Source of the DNA: Oscillospiraceae bacterium
Lineage (GTDB): Bacteria > Bacillota > Clostridia > Oscillospirales > Oscillospiraceae
Reading direction: 5' to 3'
DNA: 41,684 bases
NCBI GenBank assembly: GCA_017415775.1
Contig: JAFQFC010000038.1
Location: 1-41,684 of the forward strand
Shown here: in pieces, positions 2,313 through 27,584 of the stretch
How the letters are laid out: the number at the start of each line of letters is the position of its first letter
How positions within the stretch are numbered: the stretch's first letter is position 1
Made by a program: the position numbers and the translations under genes
The notes under the pieces: model-generated
The model's input: only the letters and a program-made list of their open reading frames with translations
The model's database searches: none
Told to the model about the DNA's origin: nothing

Positions 2313-2335
2313 AAATCGACAAAAAGTTGCAAATT

Positions 2336-4632: not shown

Positions 4633-4648
4633 AGGAGGTGCGGAGAAA

Positions 4649-6889
4649 ATGGCTAAGAAAAAAGTAACGGAGCAGCCTGCCCGCCGCACCGATAACCCCA
4701 ATGTGATGGGTCTGCGAGGCGTGGTGCTGGACCAGCCTATTACCGAAACGCTGGACAGCAACTATATGCCCTACGCCATGAGCGTCATCGTCTCCCGTGC
4801 TATTCCGGAGATCGACGGCTTCAAGCCCTCCCACCGCAAGCTCCTCTATACCATGTATAAGATGGGCCTGCTGACGGGCGGCCGCACCAAGAGCGCCAAC
4901 ATCGTAGGCCAGACCATGCGTCTCAATCCCCACGGCGATCAGGCCATCTACGAGACCATGGTGCGTCTTGCCAAGGGCAACGAGTCCCTGCTGCACCCCT
5001 TCGTGGACAGTAAGGGTAACTTCGGTAAGGTCTATTCCCGGGATATGGCCTACGCCGCCAGCCGTTATACGGAGGCAAAGCTGGCCCCCCTCTGCGCCGA
5101 GCTGTTCCGTGATCTGGACTGCGACGCCGTGGATTTTGTGGACAACTACGATAATACCATGAAGGAGCCCGCCCTGCTGCCCACCACCTTCCCCAATGTG
5201 CTGGTGTCCTCCAACCAGGGCATCGCCGTGGGTATGGCCAGCAGCATCTGCGGCTTCAATTTGGGCGAAGTGTGCGACACCACCATCGCCTACCTCAAGA
5301 ACCCGGAGCACGACCTGACCACCACCCTGCTGGCCCCCGACTTCCCCACCGGCGGCGAGCTGATCTGCGATATGGACGAGCTGCGCCGTATCTATGACAC
5401 GGGCCGCGGCAGCGTGAAGGTGCGGGCCAAGTGGCGCTACGATAAGAAGGAAAACCTCATCGAGATCTACGAGATCCCCTATTCCACCTCCATCGAGGCG
5501 ATTCTCGATAAGGTGGCCGAGCTGGTGAAGGCCGGTAAGGTGAAGGAGATCAACGACATGCGTGACGAGACGGACCTGAGCGGCCTGAAGCTGGCCGTGG
5601 ACCTCAAGCGCGGCGCAGATCCCGATAAGCTGATGCAGAAGCTTTTCAAGATGACGCCCCTGCAGGACGCCGTCAGCTGCAATTTCAACATCCTCATCGC
5701 CGGTATGCCCCGTGTGATGGGCGTGGGCGAGATCCTGGAGGAGTGGACGGCCTGGCGCACCGAGTCGGTTCGCCGCCGTGTCTACTATATCCTGAACAAG
5801 AAGAAGGAAAAGCTCCACCTGCTGCTGGGCCTGAAGCGGATCCTGCTGGACATCGATAAGGCCATCGCCATCATCCGCAACACGGAAGAAGAGGCGGAGG
5901 TCATCCCCAATCTGATGATCGGCTTTGGCATCGATCAGGTGCAGGCCGAGTACGTGGCGGAGATCAAACTGCGCAACATCAATAAGGAATATATCCTTAA
6001 GCGTGTGGCCGAAACGGAGCAGCTGCAGGACGAGATCGCCGATCTGGAGGATACCCTGCGTCAGAGCCGCCGCATCCGCAAGATCATCATCGACGAGCTG
6101 ACGGCGGTGCGCAAGAAGTATGCCCAGCCCCGTAAGACCGACATCATCTACGATCACGAGGTGGAGGAATACGACGAGGAAGAGGCGGTGGAGGAGTCTC
6201 CTGTTCACATCTTCCTTTCCAAGGAAGGTTACTTCAAGAAGATCACGCCTCAGTCCCTGCGCATGTCCGGTGAGCAGAAGTTCAAGGAGGGTGACAGCCT
6301 GCGTGTGACGGTGGAAACCACCACTGCCGCCGAGCTGATGTTCTTCACCGACAAGTGCCAGGTCTACAAGACCCGTGTGGGTGAGTTCGGCGACTCCAAG
6401 GCATCCCTGCTGGGCGACTATCTGCCGGCCAAACTGGGCATGGACAGCGGTGAGAACGTGATCGCCATGGTGCTGCCCGGCGATTACAGCGGCCATGTGC
6501 TGTTCTTCTTCGAAAACGGCAAGGCGGCCCGTGTGGAGCTGAAGGCCTACGCCACCACCTCCAACCGCCGCAAGCTTACCGGTGCCTACAGCGACAAGAG
6601 CCCTCTGGTGGCCATTCATGTGGTGCGGCAGGAGGAGGAATTGGTCCTGTACTCCACGGAGCCCCGTGCCCTGATCTTCAATACTGCGTTGCTGGCCCCC
6701 AAGGCCACCCGTGCCACGCAGGGCGTGGCCGTGATGACCATGAAGCCCAAGTTCCATCTGGAGCGTGTGGCTGCCTTGGTAGAAACCGGCATCGTCAACC
6801 AGTCCCGCTACCGTGTGCGCAGCGTGCCGGCTGCCGGCGCCCTGCTCAGGAGCGAGGACAGCGACGAAAAGCAGCTGGAGATTCTTTGA
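4649..6889 (+). CDS. Type IIA DNA topoisomerase subunit A (GyrA/ParC-like, divergent)
   Basis: DNA-cutting subunit, 746 aa, which joins the B subunit encoded just upstream into an A2B2 enzyme. The winged-helix domain carries the catalytic tyrosine Tyr140 in AASRYTEAKL and the preceding basic IDGFKPSHRKLL. The quinolone-contact loop reads NPHGDQAIYE (93-102), so the usual Ser (GyrA Ser83/ParC Ser80) is Gln98, while the acidic partner is Glu102. The tower and coiled-coil exit gate follow to about residue 500. The C-terminal part (510-735) has several beta-pinwheel-like repeats, but I see no GyrA box (QRRGGKG), which fits a ParC-like decatenase better than a supercoiling gyrase. The start has AGGAGG about 10 bases upstream. 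Confidence 0.92.
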   Translation: MAKKKVTEQPARRTDNPNVMGLRGVVLDQPITETLDSNYMPYAMSVIVSRAIPEIDGFKPSHRKLLYTMYKMGLLTGGRTKSANIVGQTMRLNPHGDQAIYETMVRLAKGNESLLHPFVDSKGNFGKVYSRDMAYAASRYTEAKLAPLCAELFRDLDCDAVDFVDNYDNTMKEPALLPTTFPNVLVSSNQGIAVGMASSICGFNLGEVCDTTIAYLKNPEHDLTTTLLAPDFPTGGELICDMDELRRIYDTGRGSVKVRAKWRYDKKENLIEIYEIPYSTSIEAILDKVAELVKAGKVKEINDMRDETDLSGLKLAVDLKRGADPDKLMQKLFKMTPLQDAVSCNFNILIAGMPRVMGVGEILEEWTAWRTESVRRRVYYILNKKKEKLHLLLGLKRILLDIDKAIAIIRNTEEEAEVIPNLMIGFGIDQVQAEYVAEIKLRNINKEYILKRVAETEQLQDEIADLEDTLRQSRRIRKIIIDELTAVRKKYAQPRKTDIIYDHEVEEYDEEEAVEESPVHIFLSKEGYFKKITPQSLRMSGEQKFKEGDSLRVTVETTTAAELMFFTDKCQVYKTRVGEFGDSKASLLGDYLPAKLGMDSGENVIAMVLPGDYSGHVLFFFENGKAARVELKAYATTSNRRKLTGAYSDKSPLVAIHVVRQEEELVLYSTEPRALIFNTALLAPKATRATQGVAVMTMKPKFHLERVAALVETGIVNQSRYRVRSVPAAGALLRSEDSDEKQLEIL

Positions 6890-14921: not shown

Positions 14922-14997
14922 GCGCGGTTAGCTCAGCTGGTAGAGCACATGCTTGACGTGCATGGGGTCACAGGTTCGAGTCCTGTACCGCGCACCA
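14922..14997 (+). tRNA. tRNA-Val (anticodon GAC)
   Basis: 76 nt. Acceptor GCGCGGT (14922-14928) pairs with ACCGCGC (14987-14993); A discriminator; encoded CCA. Anticodon stem CATGC/GCATG with loop TTGACGT. T-arm ACAGG/CCTGT with loop TTCGAGT. Its last 18 bases plus three following A are repeated at 15148-15168. Confidence 0.97.
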
Positions 14998-15285: not shown

Positions 15286-16050
15286 ATGGACGCAAAAGAT
15301 ATGATTCTCCGCCTGCGGATGCAGAAGGGTCTTTCGCAGGATGAACTGGCTGAACGAGTCTTTGTTACCCGGCAGGCGGTATCCCGCTGGGAAAACGGGG
15401 AGACAACACCCAATATTGAAACGTTGAAATTATTGTCCAAGGTTTTCGGTGTTTCTATCAATACGATCCTCGGCTCTCCACGCCGGCTGGTCTGCCAGTG
15501 CTGCGGTATGCCGATGGAGGACTCCGTGGTCAGTAAAGAAGTCGACGGTGTCTTCAACGAGGAATACTGCAAGTGGTGCTATGCTGATGGTGAATATATG
15601 TATCACGACATGGATGATCTGATCGATGTCTGTGTAGGCCACATGGCAAATGAGCAGTTTACGCCGGAGCAGGTACGGGCATATCTGCGGGATATGCTTC
15701 CGAAGCTGAATTATTGGAAGCGATATGCCCATCTGGCTGAAAAGGCAAAGTTTGAAGAATTCAAACAGCAGCTCATGGCGGAGATCAATGCGCTGCAGAT
15801 AGAGGGCATGCCGAAAGTGGAAAAGCTCCATGCGCTGGTGGGCGGATATATCAATCTGCCCTATCGCCTTCCTAACGGGAGCGAAGTTAAGTTTCTGGAC
15901 GATGGTGCGACCTATTTGGGAACGCAGCTGCCGTCGGTGTTTGGCGGAAACAGATGCTTCGGCGTCGCTGCCAATATGGAGTTTATTCTGGTATGCACTT
16001 ATGAGGAAAACGGGGCCGATCCGGAGTTGGTGATTTATAAGAAGCGGTGA
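15286..16050 (+). CDS. XRE regulator with zinc-ribbon domain
   Basis: 254 aa. Residues 6-60 are an XRE helix-turn-helix (LSQDELAERVFVTRQAVSRWENG, so a strong match). Next comes a zinc-ribbon-like segment with CQCCGMP and YCKWCYADGEY, four Cys likely to bind one Zn2+. The middle (about 105-180) is helical. The last 75 residues form a beta-rich segment I do not recognise (ALVGGYINLPYRLPNGSEV to the end). I chose the ATG at 15286 (GAGGTG 7 bases upstream); TTG at 15283 is the alternative. Similar HTH plus zinc-ribbon proteins are common in gut Clostridia without known targets. It is a single gene closed by a terminator. Confidence 0.85.
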   Translation: MDAKDMILRLRMQKGLSQDELAERVFVTRQAVSRWENGETTPNIETLKLLSKVFGVSINTILGSPRRLVCQCCGMPMEDSVVSKEVDGVFNEEYCKWCYADGEYMYHDMDDLIDVCVGHMANEQFTPEQVRAYLRDMLPKLNYWKRYAHLAEKAKFEEFKQQLMAEINALQIEGMPKVEKLHALVGGYINLPYRLPNGSEVKFLDDGATYLGTQLPSVFGGNRCFGVAANMEFILVCTYEENGADPELVIYKKR

Positions 16051-16055
16051 TTTGT

Positions 16056-16091
16056 GCCGCCCTGTCGAGGGACAGGGCGGCCGTTTCTTTT
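16056..16091 (+). terminator. Terminator after XRE/zinc-ribbon gene
   Basis: Perfect 11-bp stem (16056-16066 with 16071-16081), loop GAGG, followed by CGTTTCTTTTT. Confidence 0.88.
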
Positions 16092-16104
16092 TCCCCGAAA
16101 CCCA

Positions 16105-16133
16105 TTGACACCCCCTCCCCCAAGTGCTATCAT
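16105..16133 (+). promoter_or_regulatory. Promoter of the MFS gene
   Basis: -35 TTGACA (16105-16110), 17-base spacer ending in TGC, -10 TATCAT (16128-16133), extended -10. The start point near 16140 leaves only about 15 bases of leader, just enough for the ribosome binding site. Confidence 0.8.
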
Positions 16134-16154
16134 CGGCGGCGAGGTGAACGCTTC

Positions 16155-17420
16155 ATGGAACAACAAATCACACCCCGCAGCCTGCGCCGGAATAACCGGC
16201 TCTACATTGCGCAGGCGGCGGTGGAATACCATATCAACCTGCTGCTGACGGGCTCTTTTCTGGCGGCGCTGACGACGGCGCTGGGCATTTCCGATGCCTT
16301 GACGGGTGTGCTCAGCTCGGTGATTTCGCTGGGCTGCGTGTTCCAGATGCTGAGTCTGCTGCTGCACCTGCGGCGCTCCCGGTCTTTTGTGCTGGGCATG
16401 AGCGTGGCCAATCAGCTGCTTTTTGCGGCCCTCTATTTTATTCCCTTCCTGCCCTTGGGGGGACGGGTGCGCATCGTCCTCTTTGTGGTGCTGCTCTTGC
16501 TGGCCTACTTCGTTTACTATGTGGCCCACCCGGAAAAGGTGAGCTGGCTGATGTGCTGGGTGGAGGATAGCCGCCGCGGCATCTTCACTGCCAATATGCA
16601 GATCGTCTCTCTGGTGACGGGCATGGCCTTTTCTCTGCTGATGGGAGCGGTATTCGATCATTTCCTGGGAAAAGGGCAGAAAAATGCGGCCTTTCTCGTG
16701 TGCGGCATCACGATTTTGGCGCTGCTGGCTGTCCATACGGCGCTGCTGTGGGGCGTGACGGACCGCAAATTACCGCCGCAGCAGCGAGACGGTCTGCCGC
16801 AGCGCTTTGGGCGGGTGCTGCAGAATAAAAAGGTGCGGCGTGTGGCCGTGCTCTATCTGCTTTGGCAAACGGCCAACTATGCCGCCGTTCCCTTCTATGG
16901 CACTTATCAGATCAAGGAGTTGGGCTTCAGTCTGACGCTGGTGTCTCTTTTGGGCGTTCTGGGCAGTTTCGTCCGGGCGGTGGTGTCTCAATGGTGGGGC
17001 CGCTACGGCGACCGCCGCTCCTTCCCGGTGATGGTGCGGCTGGGCCTTTTGGTGGCGGCGGCCAGCTTTGCGGTTTGTGCCTTGGCGGTACCGGGACGGG
17101 CCGTTCTTCCCTTTGCGGCGTACAATGTGCTGTACGGCATTTCTATGGGTGCTATCGAGATCGGGCGCAATAACCTGATCTTCGACGCTGTGCCGGAGGA
17201 GGAACGCTCCGACGCACTGGCCCTGAGCCAGAGCTTGTGCGGCCTGGCAGGCTTTGCCGCCACGGCGGTGTGCGGCGTTCTCGTCAGCGCCGTACAGGCC
17301 GGCGGCAACCGGGTGCTGGGCCTGCCGCTCTATGCCCAGCAGCTGATGAGTATTCTGGCGGCCGTTTTGGCCTTGCTGGCGGCGGTCTATGTCCATCGAA
17401 CGCTGATCAAAACAAAATAA
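16155..17420 (+). CDS. MFS transporter
   Basis: 421 aa with about twelve membrane segments in two halves. It is a major facilitator superfamily transporter, probably an exporter. The helix 1-2 region has AAVEYHINLLLTGSFLAALTTALGISDALTG, and loop 8-9 has the Arg-rich QWWGRYGDRRSFPVM, the degenerate repeat of the MFS motif A (GxxxDRxGRR). The charged middle loop separates the halves at about residue 200-225. The ATG at 16155 has GAGGTG 8 bases upstream; the frame is open further upstream but that part overlaps the promoter and reads as low-quality sequence. The substrate is unknown. Confidence 0.88.
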   Translation: MEQQITPRSLRRNNRLYIAQAAVEYHINLLLTGSFLAALTTALGISDALTGVLSSVISLGCVFQMLSLLLHLRRSRSFVLGMSVANQLLFAALYFIPFLPLGGRVRIVLFVVLLLLAYFVYYVAHPEKVSWLMCWVEDSRRGIFTANMQIVSLVTGMAFSLLMGAVFDHFLGKGQKNAAFLVCGITILALLAVHTALLWGVTDRKLPPQQRDGLPQRFGRVLQNKKVRRVAVLYLLWQTANYAAVPFYGTYQIKELGFSLTLVSLLGVLGSFVRAVVSQWWGRYGDRRSFPVMVRLGLLVAAASFAVCALAVPGRAVLPFAAYNVLYGISMGAIEIGRNNLIFDAVPEEERSDALALSQSLCGLAGFAATAVCGVLVSAVQAGGNRVLGLPLYAQQLMSILAAVLALLAAVYVHRTLIKTK

Positions 17421-17425
17421 AAGAG

Positions 17426-17456
17426 AAGCAGTCGCCATGCGGCTGCTTTTCTTTTT
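17426..17456 (+). terminator. Terminator after MFS gene
   Basis: 10-bp stem (17426-17435 with 17439-17448, one U-G), loop CAT, then TTCTTTTT. Confidence 0.85.
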
Positions 17457-17510
17457 CCCCGAAAACGCCCCGAACTGTGCGGTTGTGCGGATACCGACGG
17501 CGTGGTGTGA

Positions 17511-17555
17511 TGATACTGTGCTATTCCGGCGTTTTGCCGCCGGGACACAGTATCA
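17511..17555. promoter_or_regulatory. Large dyad before the 1714-aa helicase gene
   Basis: Outer arms TGATACTGTG (17511-17520) and CACAGTATCA (17546-17555) are a perfect 10-base inverted repeat. Inside is a second perfect 6-base pair CCGGCG (17526-17531)/CGCCGG (17538-17543). It ends 11 bases before the ribosome binding site. No U-tract follows. It could be an operator or a leader RNA structure. I find no convincing promoter hexamers nearby. Confidence 0.7.
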
Positions 17556-17580
17556 TATTATATTATAAGGAGGAAGCACA

Positions 17581-20500
17581 ATGGAACTGAAATTGAAGTT
17601 CGATGTGGATATGGCCCGCACGGCCCACTATGTCAAGCAGCAGTGCGGTAAGCCGGTGATCGGCCGCCTGCTGCTGAAAAACGAAGGCAGCGAAACGCTG
17701 CGGGATGTGACGGTGACGGTCGACTCTGTGACAGACGGTCTTGCCCTGCCGGTGACGGCGTATCTGGAGGCCGTTCCTGCCGGCGGAATCGTGGAGATCC
17801 CGGAGGCCAAGAAGCTGCTGCTGAGCAGCGAATTTTTGCGCAAGCCTACCGCCAAGCTCAGCACGGAGATCGTGTTTTCCGTGACCCGTGAAGGCGAAAC
17901 GTTGTACAGTGAAGCCCGTGAGCTTGCGGTGATGCCCATGGACTATTGGGAAAATGATCCCCATTTTCGTGAACAGATGGCGGCATTTGTTCTGGACAAG
18001 CATCCTTTGGTGGCCGTGATCCTGCGCCGTGCCAGCGAGATCCTGGAACAGTGGACCGGCTCACCCTCGATCACAGGCTATCAGCATCTGGAACAGGAAC
18101 CTGACCGCCCCAGACAGATCATGGCTGCCATTTACGCAGCCATTGCCGAGCGCAAGATCCCCTATTCCGGACCCCTGACGGATGGCACAGAGCCCAGTGG
18201 TCAGTTTGCCCGCTTGCCCCACGACATTCTGGATGAAGAAAAAGGCGTGTTTACCTGTTTGGACGGGTGCTTGCTGCTGTGCGCCTGCGCATTGGCTGCC
18301 GGCCTCTACCCCGCCATGTCCTTTTTCTCCGATCACGTCATTACCGTGATCCATCTGGAGCCCACCTTCTTTTCTGTCCCCGTCATCGAGGGTGGAGATG
18401 CCATTCGCAAGCGTCTGCCTCGGGATCTGGGCGGCGGCAGCAAGATCAACGGCTCCCTGTTGGTGCTGGAATCCACCGCTATGGCTGCCGGTCACGACGC
18501 TTCCTTTGAGGATGCCGTGGCCAGTGCCACGAGAAGCCTGGAAGAGAGACCTCTGGACTACACCGTGGACATCATGGCCGCCCGTCAGGCCGGTGTGGCG
18601 GCACTGCCGGTGTTTGTGGATGACGCCGGTGATTACCACATCTGCGATGACCCCGAAGGCGTCACCGAGGCCGCCGCTCCCGACGCCGCAGACAACGTAG
18701 AACCCGACGAGGGCGAAGCCGTGGTCTACACCAAGCCCGAGCAGTGGATGCGCCGCCTGCTGAACCTGACCATGCGTAACCCTCTGATCAACAGCGGTTT
18801 TGGCAAGAATCATAGCATCCCCCTGTATTGCGGCAGCGTGCAGCAGCTGCTGGAGGCCATGGCCGACGGCGGCGAGTACGAGCTGTGCAGCAAGCCCGGC
18901 CGGCAGGATGTTCCCAAGACCTTCGATGCGCTGGCCGCCTATGACGGCAATGACGCATTGGATCTGCAGCAGCGCCGCCTGCGTGCTCCGTTGGAAGAGG
19001 ACGAGGTGTGCAAGCGTGCCAAGGAACTGTGCAAGGCCGACAAGACCTCTCTGGAGGAGCGTGGCTCCGGTATCCTGTACCTGACCGCCGGCATGCTGCG
19101 CTGGCAGGAGAGCGGTTCCGACAAATCCACAGCCCGCTATGCGCCGATTCTGCTGTGCCCGGCGGAACTGGTCCGCAGCGGCAGCAGCTATAAGGTGCGC
19201 CTGCGTGAAGAAGAGGTGCAGCTCAACGCCGCCCTGGTGGAGAAGATCCGTCAGGACTTTCAGGTGGAACTCCCGGCCTGGGAAACCCTGCCTGCCATCA
19301 ACGGCGTGGTGGACGTGCAGAAGGTACTGGCCAGCTTCCGCCGTGCCGTTCGTGATCTGAAGCGCTGGGACGTGCTGAAATGTGTGGGTCTTGCCACCTT
19401 TAACTTTGCCGATTTTGTTTTGTGGCGCGACATTCGTGAGAACCTGCCGGTGCTGCAGGAGAACAAGTTGGTGGACAGCCTTGTGTCCGGCTATCAGAAG
19501 TGGGAGAGCGACCCTGCTGCCTTTACCGCAGCGCCTTGCGATGCTGAGCCCATTCCTGTGGCGGTGGACAGCAGCCAGCTGCTGGTGATCCGTTTGGCTG
19601 AGAACGGCGAGACCTTTGTGGTGCAGGGCCCCTCGGGTACCGGCAAATCCCAGTGCATCGTGGGCGTGATCCTGCAGGCCCTGCGTAAGGGCATGCGTGT
19701 GCTGCTGGTGGCCGAGAAGAAAGCGGCGCTGGATGTGGTGAAAAAGCGTCTGGAAGCGCTGGGCCTGGGCGATGTGTGCCTGATGCTCCACAGCACCGAC
19801 ACCAAAAAGGGACAGGTATTGGGCCAGCTGGAAGCCGTGCTGGATCAGGCACAGCAGCCCGAGGAGGAAAACAAGACCTTTGTTCCCGCCGCACAGGCGC
19901 TGGAAGAGGTCAAGGATGAACTGGACGCCTATGTCCGGGCCCTGCACGGCGAGGGTGCCTGCGGCATGACGCTGTACGAGCTGCTCAGCGCCTACGAGGA
20001 GATGGCCTCTTCCGGCGCAGAAAATGGCCCTTGCTTCGACCCTGATGAACTGGCCGGTGCAGAGCAGCTGGACGCCGCCGGCTTGAAGCGCCGCATGGAC
20101 TATCTCTTCCGTCTGAATGCTACCGCCAAAGCGGTGGATGGCGGCAGCGGCGTTGGTGTGGGTCGTCTGGCCGGCGTGGAGTACAGCCGGAAGTTCAAGC
20201 ATAAGGCCGAGACGGCGGTGAAGAATTACCAGCGTGCGCTGCATGAGCTGGCTGCAGCAGCCCATGAGTTTGCGGCCAGCAGTGACCGTGCCGAAGCCGG
20301 CGATTACAACCATCTGCAGACGGAGATCCGGTTGGCAAAGCAGGTGCGGGAGCTGTCCGCCCTGCCTTCTGCCTGGAAAGACAACGGCGCCCTTGCCGAG
20401 ATCGTGGCGCCCCTGCGGGCTGCCGCCCAGCAGGCAGGCCGTGCCGACAAGCTGCGCAGCCTGCTGTTGGAAACCTGGCATGAGAGCTTTCTGGAGGAGG

Positions 20501-22725
20501 ACTGTGACGGTCTGATCCGCCAGTTCAACGAAATGGCTTCCAGCGGTCCGCTGAAAAGACGCTGGCGCATGGAACTGCTGGCCGGCCGTATTAAGCCGCT
20601 GGCCCGTGTGACGGTGGACCCGGAAACGCTGCGGATGCATCTCATTAAGCTTCGGGAGTACCAGAACTGCTGTGCGGATGCACGGGCGCTGCTGCAGGGC
20701 CACAAGACGGTGCTGCGGGAGAGCTTTGGAGAACCTCCTTACGATTGGGAGCGGGTCCTGACCACAGCCGAGCAGGCGGAGCGGGCGGAAGCCTGCCTGC
20801 GCAGCCTCGGCGGCGACAGTGAGGCCTTCCGTACCCGCTGCCTGGGCAACACCCGCTGCGAGACGGCTGCTGCCTGTCTGGCGCTGACTTGGGACGAGGT
20901 GGCCCATCACCGTGCCGCCCTGTATGAGATGCTGGATGCCAGCCCCTCTCAGTCCGGCGACAACTGGATCGAAGAAGAGTGCGGCCGCTGCCGCCTGTTG
21001 GCCCGGCAGGTGGAAATGCTGAAGGATTGGGCCAACTTCAACCGTATCTGCGCTGAAGCCGAGGCCGAGGGCATGGGCTGTGTGGTGGCGGCGTACCGCT
21101 GCGGCGAAGCGGCCGAGCAGGTGAACGCTGCCTACCGTGCGGCGCTGTACCGTGCCCTGATCTGCCACACCATTGACAGCAACCCCGTTCTCAGCACCTT
21201 CTCCGGCGCCGTGTTCAATGAGCAGATCGACCGTCTGCGCCGTTTGGACAATGAGGTGATGCAGCTGGCCCGCAAAGAGGTGTATCATCAGATCTACAGC
21301 CGCATCCGCAGTGTGGTGGATAAGGCCAAGCAGGAAACCGCAGAGCTGAGCACTCTGAAAAAGGCCATCCGCTCCAAAGGCCGTGGTTTGACGCTGCGCA
21401 AGATCTTTGCACAGAATCTGCCTCTCGTGCAGGAGCTGTGTCCCTGCATGATGATGTCCCCTCACGCCGCCGCCCAGTATTTGCCCATGCGCAGCGACCT
21501 CTTTGACCTGGTGATCTTCGACGAAGCGTCCCAGATCCCCACCAGCCGTGCGGTAGGTGCGCTGGCCCGCGGCAAGAATGCAGTGGTGGTGGGCGACTGC
21601 AATCAGATGCCGCCCACGTCCTTCTTTACTTCCACGGCGGTGGATGATGCCAACCTGGAGACGGAGGATCTGGAAAGCGTGCTGGATGATTGCAAGGCCC
21701 TGCATGTACCGGAGGTTTCTCTGAACCGTCATTATCGCAGTCACGAGAGCATTATCGCTTTTTCCAACAACCGCTTCTACGACAACCGCCTGCTGACCTT
21801 CCCCTCCGCCCGTGATCGCAGCTCCCATGTACGGCTGCATCTGGTGAACGACGGCGTTTACGACGGCGGCAAGACCCGCCGCAACCCGGTGGAGGCCAAC
21901 GCCGTGGTGGAATTTCTGCGCAGCCATTGCCGCAGCGAAGAGCGCAAGGGCATGAGTGTGGGCATCATTACCTTCAATATCCAGCAGCAGAAGCTGCTGG
22001 AGGAGCTGGTGCAGGAGGCCTGCCGCGGCGATGAGGTGCTGCGCACCTGGTGTGACCGTGCCGCTGAACCGATGTTTATCAAGAATCTGGAGAATGTCCA
22101 GGGCGATGAGCGGGATGTGATCCTCCTGAGCATCAACTACGGCCCCGACGCCAAGGGCAAGGTCTCCATGAACTTCGGCCCTCTGAACAGCGAAGGCGGC
22201 TGGCGCCGCCTGAATGTGGCGGTGACTCGTGCCCGCCACTGGATGGAGGTGTTCTCTTCTCTGGTGCCTGAGCAGATCGATCTGTCCCGCACCAACGCCA
22301 GAGGTGTTCACGAGCTGCGTGCCTTTCTGGAATATGCCGGCGGCGGCCAGCTGCCGGTGAACCGCCGTGCACTGCGTGCGCAGGATGTCCCCGGCGGTGT
22401 GACGGAAAGCCTGTGTCACGGACTGGAGGCTGCCGGCTATCAGGTGGTGCGTCATGTGGGCTGCTCCGACCTGCGTGTAGATGTGGCGGTGGTCCATCCC
22501 CGTTACCCGCAGCAGTATGTGATGGGCCTGCTGTTGGATGGCGCCGCCTACGCCGATGCCGGGACCACCCGTGACAGAGAGCTGTCTCATGTGGACGTGC
22601 TGCGCAGTCAGGGTTGGCAAATTCGCCGTGTCTGGGCGCTGGACTGGTTCGACAACCGTGACAAGGAACTGCGTGCCATCCTGCGTGAGTTGGAAGAACT
22701 CTGTGCGGCAGAAGGAGCCGTGTAA
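17581..22725 (+). CDS. Giant DUF4011-type SF1 helicase with transglutaminase-like and Vsr-like domains (putative antiphage protein)
   Basis: 1714 aa. Residues 1-120 look like a beta-sandwich. About 185-290 resemble the transglutaminase-like domain of this family (FTCLDGCLLLCACALAAGLYP with Cys226, then SDHVITVIHLE with His252). About 385-670 match the DUF4011 region (RRLLNLTMRNPLINS). The SF1 helicase follows: Walker A GPSGTGKS (683-690), a long insertion of some 600 residues rich in helix, Walker B DEAS (1314-1317), GDCNQMPP (1338-1345), LNRHYRSH (1381-1388), QGDERD (1507-1512) and LNVAVTRAR (1544-1552). The last 100 residues match the Vsr/REase-like tail (VDVAVVHP, LDGAAY, TRDRE, VWALDWF). 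Domain order is like the single-gene Hhe-type defence proteins. Start: ATG with AAGGAGG. Codon use resembles neighbours; it is a lone gene. Confidence 0.88.
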   Translation: MELKLKFDVDMARTAHYVKQQCGKPVIGRLLLKNEGSETLRDVTVTVDSVTDGLALPVTAYLEAVPAGGIVEIPEAKKLLLSSEFLRKPTAKLSTEIVFSVTREGETLYSEARELAVMPMDYWENDPHFREQMAAFVLDKHPLVAVILRRASEILEQWTGSPSITGYQHLEQEPDRPRQIMAAIYAAIAERKIPYSGPLTDGTEPSGQFARLPHDILDEEKGVFTCLDGCLLLCACALAAGLYPAMSFFSDHVITVIHLEPTFFSVPVIEGGDAIRKRLPRDLGGGSKINGSLLVLESTAMAAGHDASFEDAVASATRSLEERPLDYTVDIMAARQAGVAALPVFVDDAGDYHICDDPEGVTEAAAPDAADNVEPDEGEAVVYTKPEQWMRRLLNLTMRNPLINSGFGKNHSIPLYCGSVQQLLEAMADGGEYELCSKPGRQDVPKTFDALAAYDGNDALDLQQRRLRAPLEEDEVCKRAKELCKADKTSLEERGSGILYLTAGMLRWQESGSDKSTARYAPILLCPAELVRSGSSYKVRLREEEVQLNAALVEKIRQDFQVELPAWETLPAINGVVDVQKVLASFRRAVRDLKRWDVLKCVGLATFNFADFVLWRDIRENLPVLQENKLVDSLVSGYQKWESDPAAFTAAPCDAEPIPVAVDSSQLLVIRLAENGETFVVQGPSGTGKSQCIVGVILQALRKGMRVLLVAEKKAALDVVKKRLEALGLGDVCLMLHSTDTKKGQVLGQLEAVLDQAQQPEEENKTFVPAAQALEEVKDELDAYVRALHGEGACGMTLYELLSAYEEMASSGAENGPCFDPDELAGAEQLDAAGLKRRMDYLFRLNATAKAVDGGSGVGVGRLAGVEYSRKFKHKAETAVKNYQRALHELAAAAHEFAASSDRAEAGDYNHLQTEIRLAKQVRELSALPSAWKDNGALAEIVAPLRAAAQQAGRADKLRSLLLETWHESFLEEDCDGLIRQFNEMASSGPLKRRWRMELLAGRIKPLARVTVDPETLRMHLIKLREYQNCCADARALLQGHKTVLRESFGEPPYDWERVLTTAEQAERAEACLRSLGGDSEAFRTRCLGNTRCETAAACLALTWDEVAHHRAALYEMLDASPSQSGDNWIEEECGRCRLLARQVEMLKDWANFNRICAEAEAEGMGCVVAAYRCGEAAEQVNAAYRAALYRALICHTIDSNPVLSTFSGAVFNEQIDRLRRLDNEVMQLARKEVYHQIYSRIRSVVDKAKQETAELSTLKKAIRSKGRGLTLRKIFAQNLPLVQELCPCMMMSPHAAAQYLPMRSDLFDLVIFDEASQIPTSRAVGALARGKNAVVVGDCNQMPPTSFFTSTAVDDANLETEDLESVLDDCKALHVPEVSLNRHYRSHESIIAFSNNRFYDNRLLTFPSARDRSSHVRLHLVNDGVYDGGKTRRNPVEANAVVEFLRSHCRSEERKGMSVGIITFNIQQQKLLEELVQEACRGDEVLRTWCDRAAEPMFIKNLENVQGDERDVILLSINYGPDAKGKVSMNFGPLNSEGGWRRLNVAVTRARHWMEVFSSLVPEQIDLSRTNARGVHELRAFLEYAGGGQLPVNRRALRAQDVPGGVTESLCHGLEAAGYQVVRHVGCSDLRVDVAVVHPRYPQQYVMGLLLDGAAYADAGTTRDRELSHVDVLRSQGWQIRRVWALDWFDNRDKELRAILRELEELCAAEGAV

Positions 22726-22726
22726 A

Positions 22727-22766
22727 ACAAAAGAAGAGCAAGTCCGAAGACTTGCTCTTCTTTTGT
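22727..22766. terminator. Bidirectional terminator after helicase gene
   Basis: Perfect 18-bp stem (22727-22744 with 22749-22766), loop CGAA, A-rich and T-rich arms. Shared with the convergent membrane protein gene. Confidence 0.93.
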
Positions 22767-22779
22767 GTAGATTGAACCG

Positions 22780-23757
22780 TCAAACATTGTCCCAAGGGGA
22801 CCGCTCTGCACTATTCCGTGGAGGTGCATAGTCTGGGTGTGCTGCCGTGGGTGCCCGATCGGCATATGCGGCCTCCCGCTTGAGGCGGCGGTCCCGCAGC
22901 AGGATGAAGGCGGCGATCAGCAGTACGGCGACCGCCAGCAGCACAGCGCCGCCGATGAGCATGGCGCTGCCTGCCTGACGCAGCACCGGGGTGAAAATGT
23001 TGGGGACGCCCATCCCCTGTGAAAGGGCCTGCGACAGCTGTGCGCTCTTGATGGATACAGCGATGCCCAGCACCGGCAGCGCTGCCAGAGCGGTGTCAAT
23101 GCCCAGCCACAGGAATCCCTCCTGATGGGGCCAGCGGCACAGGAAAATGAGGAAGGCCAGCACCAACGCAGCGATCAGCAAGGCGGTGGTCACAAGAGGG
23201 CCGGCCAGCAGCGCCAGCGCAGGTCCGTATTCCGTTTGCAGATCGGCCTGCATATCCAAAAATGTGCCGGTCAGCTCCGCTTCCAGTCCGGCGGTATCGG
23301 CCAGCAGCTGGTCGACCACCAATCCCGCCTCCTCTACAGTCAAGGCTTCTCCTTCGGACTGCGCCAGCAGCGCAAAGATCTCCGCCAGCTCCTGTCGATG
23401 CTGGGTGCCGATCCGCTGCAGCGTTTCGGCGGTCAGCGCTGTGGAAACAAACCTGCCCTGCGCCACCTGACAGAGGTCCTGCCCCAGAAGGGGTGCGATC
23501 TCCCGCAGTGCGGCAGAATCAGCAACGGCCTGCGCCAGAGCGGGGTCGAGGCCCTCGGCGGTGATGTTGGAAGCATCGACCTGGAAATCCGTTTCCTGCA
23601 GTTCGTCCACGACTTCGGAAACCACCTGCTCCAGAAACTCCGGCTCCAGCAGGGCGGACACGCCTTCCCACACGGGAACAGCGATCAGCGTGGGGATCAG
23701 CGCAAACGAGAAGAGTACGGCAAGAATAATGCCAAAAACATTCAGAGCTTTTTTCAA
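22780..23757 (-). CDS. Membrane protein of unknown function
   Basis: 325 aa. There is one N-terminal membrane segment (about 6-28), then a helical, acidic domain of about 150 residues expected outside the cell (30-180), and three further segments (about 182-206, 217-236 and 262-287). A basic tail ends with Pro-rich sequence. I recognise no domain. The only start that fits is TTG at 23757 (MKKALNVFG): a GGGGGAAG ribosome binding site lies about 6 bases upstream, and no ATG occurs in the signal region. It has its own promoter (23785-23813), divergent from the amidotransferase gene. The topology suggests an envelope sensor or assembly factor, but this is only a guess. Confidence 0.8.
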   Translation of the reverse strand: MKKALNVFGIILAVLFSFALIPTLIAVPVWEGVSALLEPEFLEQVVSEVVDELQETDFQVDASNITAEGLDPALAQAVADSAALREIAPLLGQDLCQVAQGRFVSTALTAETLQRIGTQHRQELAEIFALLAQSEGEALTVEEAGLVVDQLLADTAGLEAELTGTFLDMQADLQTEYGPALALLAGPLVTTALLIAALVLAFLIFLCRWPHQEGFLWLGIDTALAALPVLGIAVSIKSAQLSQALSQGMGVPNIFTPVLRQAGSAMLIGGAVLLAVAVLLIAAFILLRDRRLKREAAYADRAPTAAHPDYAPPRNSAERSPWDNV

Positions 23758-23784
23758 AAAACTTCCCCCTTTCCATGTGACATC

Positions 23785-23813
23785 AGCATACTATATTTTG
23801 GCCGCCTTGACAA
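23785..23813 (-). promoter_or_regulatory. Promoter of the leftward membrane protein gene
   Basis: Reverse strand: -35 TTGTCA (23813-23808), 17-base spacer, -10 TATGCT (23790-23785). Confidence 0.6.
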
Positions 23814-23818
23814 GCGCC

Positions 23819-23847
23819 TTGCGCCGGGGAGACGATTGTGCTACCAT
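23819..23847 (+). promoter_or_regulatory. Promoter of the amidotransferase gene
   Basis: -35 TTGCGC (23819-23824), 17-base spacer ending in TGC, -10 TACCAT (23842-23847), extended -10. The -35 lies 5 bases from the divergent promoter's -35. Confidence 0.5.
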
Positions 23848-23870
23848 GACAGGGAAAGGATGTGGCGTCT

Positions 23871-24575
23871 ATGAAGGGGAACCGCCCGCTGATTTGCATT
23901 TCTGCCGATATCAAGCCCATGGAAAGTGATTTGCGCCGTTACGACAGCGAGCTGCACGATACCTACTCCAATGCGGTGTACTGCGCCGGCGGCTTGCCGA
24001 TCCCCACGTGTGCCGTGGGTGCGGAGGAACTGGCAGAGCTGTGCGACGGTCTGCTGCTCTCCGGCGGTGCGGATCTGGACCCGTGTTATTATGGCGAGGA
24101 GATCCTGAACGATACCGTTAAAATCCGTCCGGAGCGGGATGCGTTTGAACTGGCGCTGTTCCGTGCCTTCTATGATGCGGGTAAGCCCATCTTCGGTATC
24201 TGCCGCGGCTGCCAGCTCATCAACGTGGCCTTGGGCGGCACTTTGTATCAGGATCTGGCGGTGCAGAAAGGGCTGAACCACTCGGATCCGGCGCTGCGCC
24301 ATGAGGTTTACACGCAGAAGGATTCTCTGCTGTACCGCCTGTTTGGTGAGCGCTTTCTGACCAACTCCACCCACCACCAGTCGGTGAAGCGGTCGGCAGA
24401 CGGCTTGCGCATTACCGCCCGCTCATCGGAGGGCATCGTGGAGGCGTTGGAACACGAATCCCGGCCCGTTTTTGCCACCCAGTTCCACCCGGAGCGGCTG
24501 ACGGGCATCCTCTGGGATGACCGCACCCCGGATTTCCTGCCGCTGTTTACGCATTTTATATCCCTTTGTAAATGA
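23871..24575 (+). CDS. Gamma-glutamyl-gamma-aminobutyrate hydrolase-like class I amidotransferase
   Basis: 234 aa, PuuD/peptidase C26 family. The catalytic triad is Cys111 in the nucleophile elbow GICRGCQ with His207 and Glu209 in QFHPE. Other family blocks are DGLLLSGGADLDP and NSTHHQSVK. In E. coli PuuD cleaves gamma-glutamyl-GABA in putrescine breakdown, but related proteins hydrolyse other gamma-glutamyl compounds, and no polyamine genes are near. I chose ATG 23871, 10 bases after AAAGGA; the in-frame GTG at 23862 is too close to it. The stop codon lies next to a terminator shared with rluD. Confidence 0.9.
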   Translation: MKGNRPLICISADIKPMESDLRRYDSELHDTYSNAVYCAGGLPIPTCAVGAEELAELCDGLLLSGGADLDPCYYGEEILNDTVKIRPERDAFELALFRAFYDAGKPIFGICRGCQLINVALGGTLYQDLAVQKGLNHSDPALRHEVYTQKDSLLYRLFGERFLTNSTHHQSVKRSADGLRITARSSEGIVEALEHESRPVFATQFHPERLTGILWDDRTPDFLPLFTHFISLCK

Positions 24576-24605
24576 AGAAAAGCACCCGTCAAGGGTGCTT
24601 TTCTT
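24575..24605. terminator. Bidirectional terminator overlapping both stop codons
   Basis: Perfect 13-bp stem (24575-24587 with 24593-24605), loop GTCAA. It touches the amidotransferase stop (24573-24575) on one side and the rluD stop (24606-24604) on the other. Confidence 0.9.
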
Positions 24606-25518
24606 ACTTTTGCAGCTTTTTCAGATATCTTTCAAATTCCTCCGGCAGGCCGCAGGAAAGCTCCACCGCCTCGCCGGTGCGGGGATGGATGAACCGCAGG
24701 CCTACGGCGTGGAGGCATTGGCCGGTGAGACCGGGAACGGGCTTCTTGGCGCCGTACACCGTGTCGCCCAGAATAGGGTGGCCGATGTGGGCCATGTGGA
24801 CACGGATCTGATGGGTACGCCCCGTTTCCAGACGGCAGCGCACATGGGTGACGCCGCTGTAGCGGGCGATGACCTCCCAGTGGGTGATGGCGTGACGGCT
24901 GTTGTGGGGCGTCACGGCCATCTTCTTGCGGTCGGTGTGGTGCCGGCCGATGGGGGCGTCCACCGTGCCGCTGTCCTGGCGGAGCTTGCCCACCACCAGA
25001 CACTCGTACGTCCGGGCAAGGGTGTGGTCAGCCAGCTGGGCAGCAAGACCCAGATGGGCGGCGTCATTCTTGGCGGCGATGATGAGACCGCTGGTGTCCC
25101 GGTCGATGCGGTGTACGATGCCGGGCCGCTTTTCTCCGCCTATGCCGGAGAGAGAGTCTCCGCAGTGGTGCAGCAGGGCGTTCACCAGCGTGCCGTCGGG
25201 ATGGCCCGGGGCAGGATGGACCACAAGGCCGGTAGGCTTGTTGACCACGATCACGTCCTCATCTTCATACACCACGTCCAGGGCGATGTCCTGTGCCGCC
25301 ACTTCCGTCTCCGCTGCCTCGGGCAGGGTGACGAACACCGTTTCGCTGCCCGTCATGCGGTAGCTCTTGCCGGGAGCCTTGCCGTTGCAGACCACGCAGC
25401 CGCTTTCCAGCAGCCGGGCCGCAGCGCTGCGGCTGATACCTTCCAGCTGCGATGCCAGAAAACTGTCGAGGCGCTGGCCGGCGTCTTCAGTTGTCGCCTG
25501 CAGGATCTTCGGTTCCAT
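24604..25518 (-). CDS. rluD: RluD-type 23S rRNA pseudouridine synthase
   Basis: 304 aa RluA/RluD-family enzyme that isomerises uridines in large-subunit rRNA. An N-terminal S4 RNA-binding domain (RLDSFLASQLEGISRSAAARLL region) leads to the catalytic domain with HRIDRDTSG, catalytic Asp139. VVNKPTGLVVHP and ETGRTHQIRVHMAHIGHPILGD are other family signatures. I chose ATG 25518, 8 bases from AAGGAG; GTG at 25524 sits only one base after it. It overlaps the end of lspA by 32 bases; this lspA-rluD order is common in Firmicutes. Which uridines it modifies cannot be told from sequence, so the symbol is by family. Confidence 0.92.
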   Translation of the reverse strand: MEPKILQATTEDAGQRLDSFLASQLEGISRSAAARLLESGCVVCNGKAPGKSYRMTGSETVFVTLPEAAETEVAAQDIALDVVYEDEDVIVVNKPTGLVVHPAPGHPDGTLVNALLHHCGDSLSGIGGEKRPGIVHRIDRDTSGLIIAAKNDAAHLGLAAQLADHTLARTYECLVVGKLRQDSGTVDAPIGRHHTDRKKMAVTPHNSRHAITHWEVIARYSGVTHVRCRLETGRTHQIRVHMAHIGHPILGDTVYGAKKPVPGLTGQCLHAVGLRFIHPRTGEAVELSCGLPEEFERYLKKLQK

Positions 25519-25987
25519 CGGCACTCTCCTTTTTGGGTGCGTCGTACTTTTCGTATAGCCACAGGTAGTAGATGCTGCCTAAAATGGTGCCCACCACCAC
25601 GAAACAGTCGGCCAGATTGAAAATGGGATAATCAAACAGCAGCAGGTCGAACATATCCACCACGTAGCCCAGCATAATGCGGTCGATCATGTTGCCGATG
25701 CCGCCGCCCAGGATCAGCACGCAGGCGATGACGCCCAGCGGATGGCGCACGATCTTCCTGAACAACACCACCGCCACGGCGATGAGCAGCACAGAGGTCA
25801 TGGCCACCAGCAGCATTGTTTTGCCCGAAAGGCTGGACCATGCGGCGCCGTAGTTGTGCAGCCGCTGCAGCTGCATGATGTGGGGGATGAAGGGGACAGA
25901 TTCGCCCACCGCCAGATGGGTGACGGTCCAGTACTTGAGCCACTGGTCGGCGGCGATGGTCAATACAAAAAGAAATGCGTACAGCAT
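25487..25987 (-). CDS. lspA: Lipoprotein signal peptidase (signal peptidase II)
   Basis: 166 aa, four membrane segments. It removes the signal peptide from diacylglyceryl-modified prolipoproteins, such as the lipoprotein encoded at 7802. The two catalytic aspartates are Asp102 in GNMIDR and Asp127 in FNLADCF; RLHNYGAAWS is the usual NxGAAF-like block. I chose ATG 25987 (GAAAGGAA upstream); the frame extends to 26065 but that part is charged and not membrane-like. It forms an operon with rluD through a 32-base overlap. The last 25 residues are a polar tail. Confidence 0.95.
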   Translation of the reverse strand: MLYAFLFVLTIAADQWLKYWTVTHLAVGESVPFIPHIMQLQRLHNYGAAWSSLSGKTMLLVAMTSVLLIAVAVVLFRKIVRHPLGVIACVLILGGGIGNMIDRIMLGYVVDMFDLLLFDYPIFNLADCFVVVGTILGSIYYLWLYEKYDAPKKESADGTEDPAGDN

Positions 25988-26017
25988 GAAAGCGTTCCTT
26001 TCGGTGCGTTTTTTCTT

Positions 26018-26046
26018 ATCATAGCGCAAATGCCCCGGTTTTGCAA
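26018..26046 (-). promoter_or_regulatory. Promoter of lspA-rluD
   Basis: Reverse strand: -35 TTGCAA (26046-26041), 17-base spacer, -10 TATGAT (26023-26018). Confidence 0.7.
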
Positions 26047-26082
26047 CCATCCCTTTTCGACGCAAAAATTCCCCATCCTTTC

Positions 26083-26111
26083 TTGTGTGCTGTCGCTGTT
26101 TGTGCTATAAT
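26083..26111 (+). promoter_or_regulatory. Promoter of the miaB-divIVA operon
   Basis: -35 TTGTGT (26083-26088), 17-base spacer ending in TGC, consensus -10 TATAAT (26106-26111), extended -10. It leaves a leader of about 54 bases. This is the only promoter I recognise before the nine-gene run ending at 36627. Confidence 0.75.
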
Positions 26112-26171
26112 ACATTAGTTAAAGTAGATTACTATCGCCTTTTTTCGAAACGGGCGGTTTGGAGGTCAATT

Positions 26172-27584
26172 TTGGATAGAAAACTGGTGGTGCTGGACGA
26201 GACACAGATGTCCCGTCAGCGTGATTTTGAACAGAAGATTCGTGCCATCCACGAGAGCCGGGGCGTCACGCCCAAGGCACTGGTGGACACCTTCGGCTGC
26301 CAGCAGAACGTGGCCGACAGTCAGAATATCATGGGCATGCTGCGTGCCATGGGCTGCGAGCTGACCGACGAGGTCAAGGAAGCTGACATCGTGGTGCTCA
26401 ATACCTGTGCCATCCGTGACCACGCCGAAAAGCGGGTCTACGGCACCCTGGGCGCCCTGACCCACACCAAGAAAGCCAACCCCGGGCAGATCATCTGCCT
26501 GTGCGGCTGCATGGCCCAGCGCAGCGAGGTAGCCGAGAAGGTCCGCAAGTCCTATCGCCATGTGGATCTGGTCTTCGGCCCCCAGGCCATGTGGAAGTTC
26601 CCGGAGCTTCTCCATCAGGTCTATACCCGCCGCGGCCGGGTCTTCAGCGTGGAGGACGAACATGGTCACATCGCCGAAGGCATGCCCGTGGTCCGGGAAG
26701 GCGGCATCCGTGCGTGGGTGTCCATCATGTATGGCTGCAACAACTTCTGCTCCTACTGCATCGTCCCCTATGTCCGGGGCCGGGAACGCAGCCGCGATCC
26801 CGAGCGCATTTTGGAAGAGGTGCGTGAGCTGGCCGCTGCCGGTTATAAGGAGATCACCCTGCTGGGTCAGAACGTCAACTCTTACGGCAAGGATCTGGGC
26901 ACCGGTTATAACTTCGCCGCTCTGCTGCGGGACATCGATAAGATCGAGGGCGACTACCTGATCCGCTTCATGTCCTCCCAGCCCAAGGACGTCACCCATG
27001 AGTTGTTTGACGCCATGGCCGAGTGTAAGCATGTGGCCAAGCAGCTGCACCTGCCGGTGCAGTCCGGCTGTGACCGGGTGCTGCGTGCCATGAACCGCCC
27101 CTACAACAAGGAAAAATATCTGGAACTCATCACCTATGCCCGCAAGGTCATGCCGGAGCTGGTGCTGACCAGCGATGTCATCATCGGCTTCCCCGGTGAA
27201 ACGGAAGCCGAGGCCATGGAAACGGTGGAGCTGGTGCGTCAGGTGGAATTCGACGCCCTCTTTACCTTCATTTTCTCCCCCCGCCCCGGTACACCGGCGG
27301 CCAAGATGGAAGACCCCGTTCCCCGTGCCGAGAAGCAGGTGTGGTTTGACCGCCTGTGTGACGCCCAGAACGAGATTTCTGCCCGACTCCACGCCGAATA
27401 CGTGGGCCGTACGGTCCGTGCGCTGGTGGACGGCGAAACGGACGATGCACGCTGGCCCCTGTCTGCCCGCACGGCCGGCGGCCGTCTGGTGCATCTGGTG
27501 GGCGACAAGAGCGCCCTTGGCACGTATCAGGACGTGAAGATCACCGACAGCAACACCTGGGCTCTCTTTGGAGAGATCCTTTGA
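26172..27584 (+). CDS. miaB: tRNA-2-methylthio-N6-dimethylallyladenosine synthase MiaB
   Basis: 470 aa radical SAM methylthiotransferase that adds the 2-methylthio group to i6A37 of tRNAs. The N-terminal UPF0004 domain has cluster-binding Cys43 (TFGCQQN), Cys79 (NTCAIR) and Cys113 (CGCMAQ). The radical SAM motif CNNFCSYC gives Cys189, Cys193 and Cys196. The QNVNSYG, SSQPKDVT and DVIIGFPGETEAEA blocks follow, and a C-terminal TRAM domain ends the protein. I chose a TTG start at 26172: GGAGG lies 6 bases upstream and no ATG fits. MiaA, which makes its substrate, is encoded in the same operon. The MTTase subtype (MiaB rather than MtaB) is supported by the neighbours. Confidence 0.95.
   Translation: MDRKLVVLDETQMSRQRDFEQKIRAIHESRGVTPKALVDTFGCQQNVADSQNIMGMLRAMGCELTDEVKEADIVVLNTCAIRDHAEKRVYGTLGALTHTKKANPGQIICLCGCMAQRSEVAEKVRKSYRHVDLVFGPQAMWKFPELLHQVYTRRGRVFSVEDEHGHIAEGMPVVREGGIRAWVSIMYGCNNFCSYCIVPYVRGRERSRDPERILEEVRELAAAGYKEITLLGQNVNSYGKDLGTGYNFAALLRDIDKIEGDYLIRFMSSQPKDVTHELFDAMAECKHVAKQLHLPVQSGCDRVLRAMNRPYNKEKYLELITYARKVMPELVLTSDVIIGFPGETEAEAMETVELVRQVEFDALFTFIFSPRPGTPAAKMEDPVPRAEKQVWFDRLCDAQNEISARLHAEYVGRTVRALVDGETDDARWPLSARTAGGRLVHLVGDKSALGTYQDVKITDSNTWALFGEIL

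What the first reader, a model, noticed from the sequence alone, without database searches (positions are those of the whole stretch)
17581..22725. Stand-alone 1714-residue helicase protein that looks like a single-gene defence system
Seen: complete SF1 (Upf1-like) helicase motifs from GPSGTGKS to LNVAVTRAR, an N-terminal beta-sandwich plus Cys226/His252 transglutaminase-like region, a DUF4011-type segment, and a Vsr/REase-like tail. Known: proteins with DUF4011, helicase and Vsr-type domains have been reported as single-gene antiphage systems (Hhe type, from memory). Inference: this is such a system or a variant. The N-terminal beta-sandwich plus transglutaminase-like extension and the roughly 600-residue insertion between helicase motifs I and II may be what is new.
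Basis: partly seen in the sequence, partly recalled or inferred. Interest (0 to 1): 0.72.

Follow-up and report, generated by a model that had tools for sequence, protein, structure and literature searches.

The report
Giant phage-defence helicase with eroded nuclease
This is a lone, patchily distributed gene for a very large helicase protein close to a family named as bacterial anti-phage defence, and it belongs to a branch in which the DNA-cutting domain has lost much of its expected active site, so the usual idea of how such proteins stop phages may not hold for it.

Summary
In detail: window 17581-22725 (+) encodes an intact 1714-residue protein with a transglutaminase-like N-terminus (C226, H252, E297), DUF4011, all SF1 helicase motifs and a Vsr-type (MTES_1575) nuclease-fold end. 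The best whole-length match is NCBIfam 'anti-phage protein ProA' (1446.7 bits, cut-off 1500), not Hhe (690, cut-off 2000). The domain plan was published in 2013, and the 620-residue span between motifs I and II is shared by the relatives aligned, so neither is new. The gene looks accessory: full length in 1 of 32 (partly incomplete) genomes of its genus, with an empty site in one sister genome.

A glutamate kept in 16 of 16 rows outside its clade is absent in all 30 rows inside (window included; one change on the tree). The window also lacks the Vsr His69 and Glu25 equivalents, and the C-terminal tail that 38 of 44 rows have (DUF3320 in 7 of 7 tested). Asp1634 and Asp1653 stay. Best reading: a ProA-like defence protein driven by its helicase, perhaps with the transglutaminase-like domain, the former nuclease binding DNA without cutting. 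Defence activity and nuclease loss are inferred, not measured.

The parts
17581..22725 (+). whole gene, 1714 aa, ProA/PDC-S37-like giant helicase protein
17567..17573 (+). ribosome-binding-site-like AAGGAGG, 7 bases before the ATG
   Evidence: read by eye
   Evidence: alignment
17947..18615 (+). residues ~123-345, transglutaminase-like region; C226 at 18256-18258, H252 at 18334-18336, E297 at 18469-18471
   Evidence: the three residues are invariant in 20 of 20 rows chosen to have the domain; weak Pfam Transglut_core in 7 of 20 rows, none for the window itself
18754..19245 (+). DUF4011, residues 392-555
   Evidence: E 1.1e-28
19567..19758 (+). SF1 helicase first core part with motif I GPSGTGKS (683-690)
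19759..21480 (+). residues 727-1300, long stretch between motifs I and II, present in the relatives aligned
21511..22251 (+). SF1 helicase second core part, motif II VIFDEASQIP (1311-1320) to motif VI RRLNVAVTRAR (1542-1552)
22408..22692 (+). MTES_1575/Vsr-type REase fold, residues 1610-1704; D1634, D1653 and D1665 kept; L1651 and A1658 (and T1608 just before the Pfam stretch) stand where relatives with an intact site mostly have E, H and E
22727..22766 (.). perfect 18-bp inverted repeat with 4-base loop, probable terminator between the convergent genes
   Evidence: I5
16047..17420 (+). left flank: MFS transporter gene, last gene before the insertion
22780..23757 (-). right flank: convergent ORF; its counterpart directly follows the MFS gene in sister genome G028

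Best explanation
A stand-alone, accessory (probably horizontally spread) defence gene of the ProA/PDC-S37 kind. Shown here: domain order, intact helicase motifs, transglutaminase-like C226/H252/E297, patchy distribution, an empty site in one genome, eroded nuclease residues and a missing C-terminal tail. Inferred: the protein patrols DNA; the DUF4011-SF1 helicase part loads on phage DNA or a phage replication intermediate and hydrolyses ATP. The Vsr-fold end no longer cuts DNA in the usual metal-dependent way but still holds DNA (compare the inactivated nuclease domain of RecC). The outcome is produced by helicase action on the DNA, by the transglutaminase-like domain acting on proteins, or both.
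For: Whole-length match to NF058533 'anti-phage protein ProA' (residues 19-1709, 1446.7 bits) and to PADLOC PDC-S37 (967 bits). Accessory: full-length gene in 1 of 32 genomes of the genus, own included; in G028 the two flanks (74% and 76.5% identical) lie 116 bases apart without the gene. ProA over its cut-off in 12 of 295 genomes of an order sample, 10 of 391 of a class sample and 5 of 299 of a phylum sample (the samples overlap). Relatives beside known defence: in G247 the gene lies about 40 bases behind a complete Shango SngABC on the same strand; in G208 it lies beside type I R-M genes. Nuclease: position 1651 is E in 16 of 16 rows outside the clade and in 0 of 30 inside it; position 1658 is H in 13 of 16 and 3 of 30; position 1608 is E in 14 of 16 and 7 of 30; the E state changes once on a tree built without the REase columns, branch support 100. 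A paper maps the Vsr active site E25, D51, H64, H69, D97 onto a DUF559 protein (PMC12907096, passage), which puts 1608, 1634, 1653, 1658 and probably 1665 at active-site positions (my mapping). DUF3320 lies over cut-off in the tail of 7 of 7 tailed relatives tested and in neither of two tailless ones; the best place in the window's own draft genome scores 13.5 bits, cut-off 25.
Against: The ProA cut-off is missed (1446.7 against 1500). No phage assay of this protein is known to me, and no paper on ProA or PDC-S37 was identified in the held library, so what was assayed for ProA is unknown. The window's neighbours are not a defence island: of 10 scanned only two HTH proteins gave weak HTH-level hits. 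Relatives in at least two loci sit among housekeeping genes (DnaE/DegV, Lon/MurT), and a large DUF4011 gene is core in P. aeruginosa (PMC10250203, passages). Base composition does not mark the gene as foreign. The empty site rests on one genome, and many genus genomes are incomplete. E. coli Vsr, as I recall it, lacks the ECDG glutamate too, and D1634, D1653 and D1665 are kept, so some cutting cannot be excluded.
Confidence: 0.6

Rival explanations
1. The nuclease end is still active: the clade has gone to a Vsr-like site that does not need the ECDG glutamate, with D1634 and D1653 binding metal and another residue replacing the histidine. The protein then works like other helicase-nuclease defence proteins and cuts phage DNA.
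For: D1634 is D in 46 of 46 and D1653 in 45 of 46 rows; D1665 is kept in the window and in 26 of 30 clade rows; 3 of 30 clade rows keep the histidine; the Pfam REase model still scores 74 bits.
Against: The window lacks E1651, H1658 and the E25 equivalent at once, and the histidine position varies freely in the clade (A, G, K, S, Y, R, F, C, E, N, or a gap in 4 rows).
Confidence: 0.25
2. A decaying or repurposed gene: the window copy has lost its C-terminal tail and nuclease site and no longer defends; it is on the way to loss, or to a non-defence role.
For: Longest end branch in its starred set of 16 rows (1.06); no DUF3320 tail; family f16 of the order carries relatives with most motifs eroded, matched in 12 of 22 genomes and in 10 of 11 good ones.
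Against: 1714 codons without a stop, all helicase motifs and the C/H/E triad intact, own ribosome-binding site and terminator; tailless relatives with intact helicase motifs exist elsewhere (L059, L110).
Confidence: 0.12
3. A housekeeping DNA-repair or RNA helicase of the Upf1/SMUBP2 type, not a defence gene.
For: The helicase core is nearest to SMUBP-2/SEN1/UPF1 among solved structures; three genomes of one genus keep a relative in the same gene layout, between DnaE and DegV where named; a DUF4011 gene is core in P. aeruginosa (PMC10250203, passages).
Against: Full-length gene in 1 of 32 genomes of the genus, with an empty site in one; whole-length match to families named for defence.
Confidence: 0.05

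Closest known systems
NCBIfam NF058533, anti-phage protein ProA
   Same: Whole-length match in one stretch, residues 19-1709 to profile 4-1708 of 1903: transglutaminase-like N-terminus, DUF4011, split SF1 helicase, Vsr-type REase.
   Different: 1446.7 bits, under the cut-off of 1500; lacks the last ~195 profile positions; nuclease site eroded. Over-cut-off members come in both kinds: intact site (plasmid proteins L086, L088) and site without E (for example L028, L057).
PADLOC PDC-S37 (candidate defence family)
   Same: 384-1709 matched to profile 8-1343 of 1550, 967 bits.
   Different: The model appears to start at DUF4011, so the N-terminal ~380 residues are not part of it; last ~207 profile positions absent.
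Hhe (named 'Gao Hhe' in PMC11291487, passage)
   Same: DUF4011-bearing single protein with SF1 helicase (NCBIfam title and PADLOC match; its Vsr-type end is recalled).
   Different: 690 bits against a cut-off of 2000; 479 bits in PADLOC, best stretch only 1096-1709.
[quoted passage not shown] passages)
   Same: Transglutaminase, SF1 helicase and Vsr REase in one protein, without modification genes.
   Different: No HEPN hit in Pfam and no C-terminal wHTH/DUF3320 in the window protein.
RecC inactivated nuclease domain (PMC1185551, abstract)
   Same: A PD-(D/E)xK-fold domain in a helicase machine that lost catalysis and handles DNA instead.
   Different: Analogy only; no homology between the proteins was tested.

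Membership tests
ProA (NF058533) | score at or above the curated cut-off of 1500 bits | tested here: not met
   1446.7 bits
ProA (NF058533) | match along the whole profile of 1903 positions | tested here: not met
   4-1708 matched; the tailless protein of L101 (the same gene as L059) still scores 1893, so tail loss alone is not why the window falls short
ProA (NF058533) | anti-phage activity | not testable with these tools
   needs plating assays; no paper on ProA identified
Hhe (NF042953) | score at or above the curated cut-off of 2000 bits | tested here: not met
   690.2 bits
PDC-S37 (PADLOC) | strong match from DUF4011 to REase | tested here: met
   967.5 bits, profile 8-1343 of 1550; PADLOC's own cut-offs were not shown
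SF1 Upf1-like helicase | motifs I, II, III, V, VI intact | tested here: met
MTES_1575/Vsr-type nuclease | fold by profile | tested here: met
   PF18741 74.1 bits, cut-off 38.2
MTES_1575/Vsr-type nuclease | active-site residues D, E (ECDG), D, H | tested here: not met
   D1634 and D1653 kept, L1651 and A1658 in place of E and H
transglutaminase-like peptidase | Cys-His-acid triad | tested here: inconclusive
   C226, H252, E297 conserved in 20 of 20 chosen rows, but no direct Pfam hit for the window and no fold prediction
Giant HEPN-transglutaminase-helicase-Vsr-wHTH class (2013) | C-terminal wHTH/DUF3320 | tested here: not met
   protein ends at 1714; no DUF3320 over cut-off in the own draft genome

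The most novel reading that the evidence does not exclude
A whole clade of ProA-like proteins, spread over the window's phylum and seen on one Bacteroides plasmid, lost nuclease catalysis once and is now a nuclease-dead helicase defence in which the transglutaminase-like cysteine domain is the effector: a single-protein phage sensor coupled to a protease or protein cross-linker. The window protein, which has also lost the C-terminal tail, would be the leanest natural form.
Probability: 0.25. Interest if true: 0.75.

Novelty: new variant of a known kind. Interest (0 to 1): 0.47.

Why it matters
Large DUF4011-helicase-Vsr proteins are easily read as helicase-nucleases that cut phage DNA. A clade that lacks a conserved active-site glutamate, and mostly the histidine, while keeping the helicase motifs and (in 19 of 23 clade rows with an N-terminus) the transglutaminase-like cysteine, makes the question 'which domain does the work?' directly testable with single-residue loss-of-function changes, and warns against annotating these genes as nucleases.

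Tried and rejected
Hhe membership: rejected on curated cut-offs. Defence island around the window gene: only weak HTH matches in 2 of 10 flanking ORFs. Mobile-element ends: no repeat of 14 bp or more within 17300-17620, and of the 20 direct families printed (of 32) and 20 inverted pairs in 17380-22900 none joins the two intergenic ends. Phage origin: 2 of 50,697 phage records match, one over 99% of the query at 33% identity, without annotation; no viral contig matched the peptide patterns. Foreign base composition: GC3 of the gene is 0.751, near its neighbours (0.75-0.82 for MFS, miaA, miaB, mutS, mutL), so no support. Link to the eroded f16 relatives: on a tree they form their own long-branched group and the window stays in its 16-row set (with the tool's long-branch warning). 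DUF3320 encoded elsewhere in the genome: none over cut-off, in a draft 75.66% complete. Transglutaminase fold from solved structures: no relative. Loose-threshold counts of the ProA family (93 of 295, 125 of 299) were not used as evidence of presence: the same threshold rings in 7 of 14 control genomes, none over the cut-off. Search for a ProA or PDC-S37 paper: none identified (in one search, 605 papers held two terms and 25 were listed).

Full report
Observation. The frame 17581-22725 (+) is intact and 1714 residues long. Pfam finds DUF4011, both helicase parts and the MTES_1575 REase; all SF1 motifs are in place, with 620 residues between motifs I and II. The transglutaminase-like region rests on family conservation (C226, H252, E297 invariant in 20 of 20 rows chosen to have the domain) and on weak Pfam hits in relatives (Transglut_core in 7 of 20, DUF553 in 4 of 20), none in the window protein itself. 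Among solved structures the helicase core is nearest to SMUBP-2, SEN1 and UPF1.

What it is. NCBIfam NF058533, 'anti-phage protein ProA', covers residues 19-1709 with 1446.7 bits against a cut-off of 1500; PADLOC PDC-S37 scores 967 bits and Hhe trails in both libraries. So it resembles, and probably shares descent with, ProA-type proteins, but by the curated cut-off it is not a member. The domain plan was described in 2013 as giant HEPN-transglutaminase-helicase-Vsr-wHTH proteins thought to act without modification enzymes (PMC3710099, passages read).

Accessory and stand-alone. A match at E <= 0.001 was found in 16 of 199 relatives, the own genome included. In the genus (32 genomes, own included; by handle number the other 31 are among the 199) only G003 also matched, with a different 1279-aa protein. 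Only 14 of the 32 are at least 90% complete and at most 5% contaminated, so absences are softer than the count suggests. The MFS gene on the left is in 2 of 32 genomes; the protein of 24517-25617 on the right is matched in 29 of 32, in 26 of them below 1e-50. In the one other genome with the MFS gene, G028, blastn places window 16182-17425 and 22823-26759 at 662-1905 and 2022-6001 of the fetched stretch: an empty site without the giant gene. This rests on a single genome, and loss there instead of gain here is not excluded. Base composition does not mark the gene as foreign. The family is sparse at its cut-off: 12 of 295, 10 of 391 and 5 of 299 genomes in overlapping samples of order, class and phylum; of 14 control genomes none passes it.

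Neighbours of relatives. I fetched 15 neighbourhoods of relatives (beside two other stretches) and picked 170 ORFs by a mechanical rule; 129 of the 170, from 13 of the 15 loci, were scanned against PADLOC at 1e-10. Dropped were all ORFs of L099 and L106 (taken as near-duplicates of L100 and L093), four ORFs of L094 that mirror those of L093 by layout, and 13 short ORFs. Only 25 of 174 matching families were printed, so absence elsewhere is not shown. Follow-up of 20 proteins found a complete Shango SngA-SngB-SngC directly upstream of the relative in L097, type I R-M genes next to the one in L095, with the R gene in two frames, and a PADLOC candidate (PDC-S05) near the one in L104. Others sit among housekeeping genes (DnaE, WhiA and DegV in L093; Lon and MurT in L092). 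No background rate was measured. On plasmids 440 records match, only 4 of them over at least 80% of the query at one place.

The nuclease end. From an alignment of the window and hand-picked relatives, 46 rows were counted; L042, L043 and L045 (very eroded) and the near-copies L029 and L056 were left out, and three loci gave no long frame. Close pairs such as L033/L034 and L113/L118 remain, so rows are not independent. The motif D..ECDG..YH is kept outside the window's clade: E in 16 of 16 rows (the rows were split on this residue), H in 13 of 16, and E at 1608 in 14 of 16. Eight further, more distant rows seen but not counted here (L065, L073-L076, L078, L080, L082) also show ECDG. In the 30 rows without E (window included) the residue is L, M, I, S or V, H remains in 3 of 30 and E1608 in 7 of 30, while D1634 is kept in 30 and D1653 in 29. 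On a tree of the DUF4011-helicase part (residues 390-1600, without REase and transglutaminase columns) the 30 rows are one side of a branch with support 100: one change against a shuffled mean of 13.5 (quick method, with warnings on long rows and letter make-up). The tree is unrooted; that the change was a loss is inferred from the E in the more distant DUF4011 helicases. The proteins over the ProA cut-off include both kinds. The paper on Caulobacter VsrA maps Vsr E25, D51, H64, H69 and D97 to DUF559 residues (PMC12907096, passage read); by my alignment 1608, 1634, 1653, 1658 and probably 1665 are the counterparts. From memory, E. coli Vsr itself lacks the ECDG glutamate, so loss of E alone is not proof of inactivity; the joint loss of E, H and the E25 equivalent in the window is stronger, but still indirect.

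The missing tail. Of 44 rows whose 3' end is held, four end within 50 residues of the window's end (WIN, L059, L110, L120), two more have short tails (L061, L131) and 38 have more than 150 residues. DUF3320 lies over cut-off in the tail of 7 of 7 tailed relatives tested; of the two tailless ones tested, G973 had no match and G557 only 12.1 bits on another contig. The own draft genome has no DUF3320 over cut-off. The 2013 paper proposed that the C-terminal wHTH domains, which overlap DUF3320, recognise invading DNA, so the window protein must do without that part.

How it most likely works. Shown: architecture, residues kept and lost, distribution, one empty site. Inferred: the DUF4011-helicase part senses and remodels phage DNA at the cost of ATP, as HamB does in Hachiman (PMC12278908, passages), and the Vsr-fold end acts as a non-cutting DNA module, by analogy with RecC (PMC1185551, abstract). 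The transglutaminase-like residues are kept in most clade rows with an N-terminus (C226 in 19 of 23, H252 in 20 of 23, E297 in 19 of 23 with D in 4), which makes the domain a candidate effector; four rows (L114, L115, L116, L119) lost the cysteine as well, which speaks against it being essential in every member.

Verdict. A new variant of a known kind. It is ordinary as a domain plan; the point of interest is a clade-wide erosion of the nuclease site in proteins named as anti-phage.

Noticed in passing
L042, L043, L045, L050, L052, L132, L133 (family f16 of the order): About 1680-residue relatives with the same plan in which the transglutaminase Cys position is S, G or A, the REase motif is lost, and, in the three rows printed (L042, L043, L045), helicase motifs III-VI are degenerate with Walker A partly kept. 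Matched in 12 of 22 f16 genomes, 10 of 11 good ones, all 8 genera: possibly a domesticated, mostly catalysis-free protein.
   Followed up: partly
L097:7564-18517: A ProA-like gene lies about 40 bases behind a complete Shango system (SngA, SngB, SngC) on the same strand: possible combined operon.
   Followed up: partly
L093, L094, L106: Three genomes of one genus (g117) keep a ProA-like gene in the same ORF layout, between DnaE and DegV as named in L093: persistence at one place, unlike the window gene.
   Followed up: no
L095:3991-7251: Type I restriction R subunit in two frames beside nearly full-length M and S genes, next to a ProA-like gene.
   Followed up: no
window:18061-22620 (-): A 1519-codon open frame lies antisense to the giant gene; probably a by-product of GC-rich third positions.
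   Followed up: no
window:15001-16182: Next to tRNA-Val (14922-14997) the window carries an HTH + zinc-ribbon gene of low GC (0.508) where sister genome G028 has only 118 bases between the tRNA stretch and the MFS stretch: a second difference at this locus.
   Followed up: partly
phage record MT836269.1: An 11.4-kb unannotated 'Bacteriophage sp.' record holds a relative over 99% of the query at 33% identity; it may be a bacterial or mobile-element contig rather than a phage.
   Followed up: no
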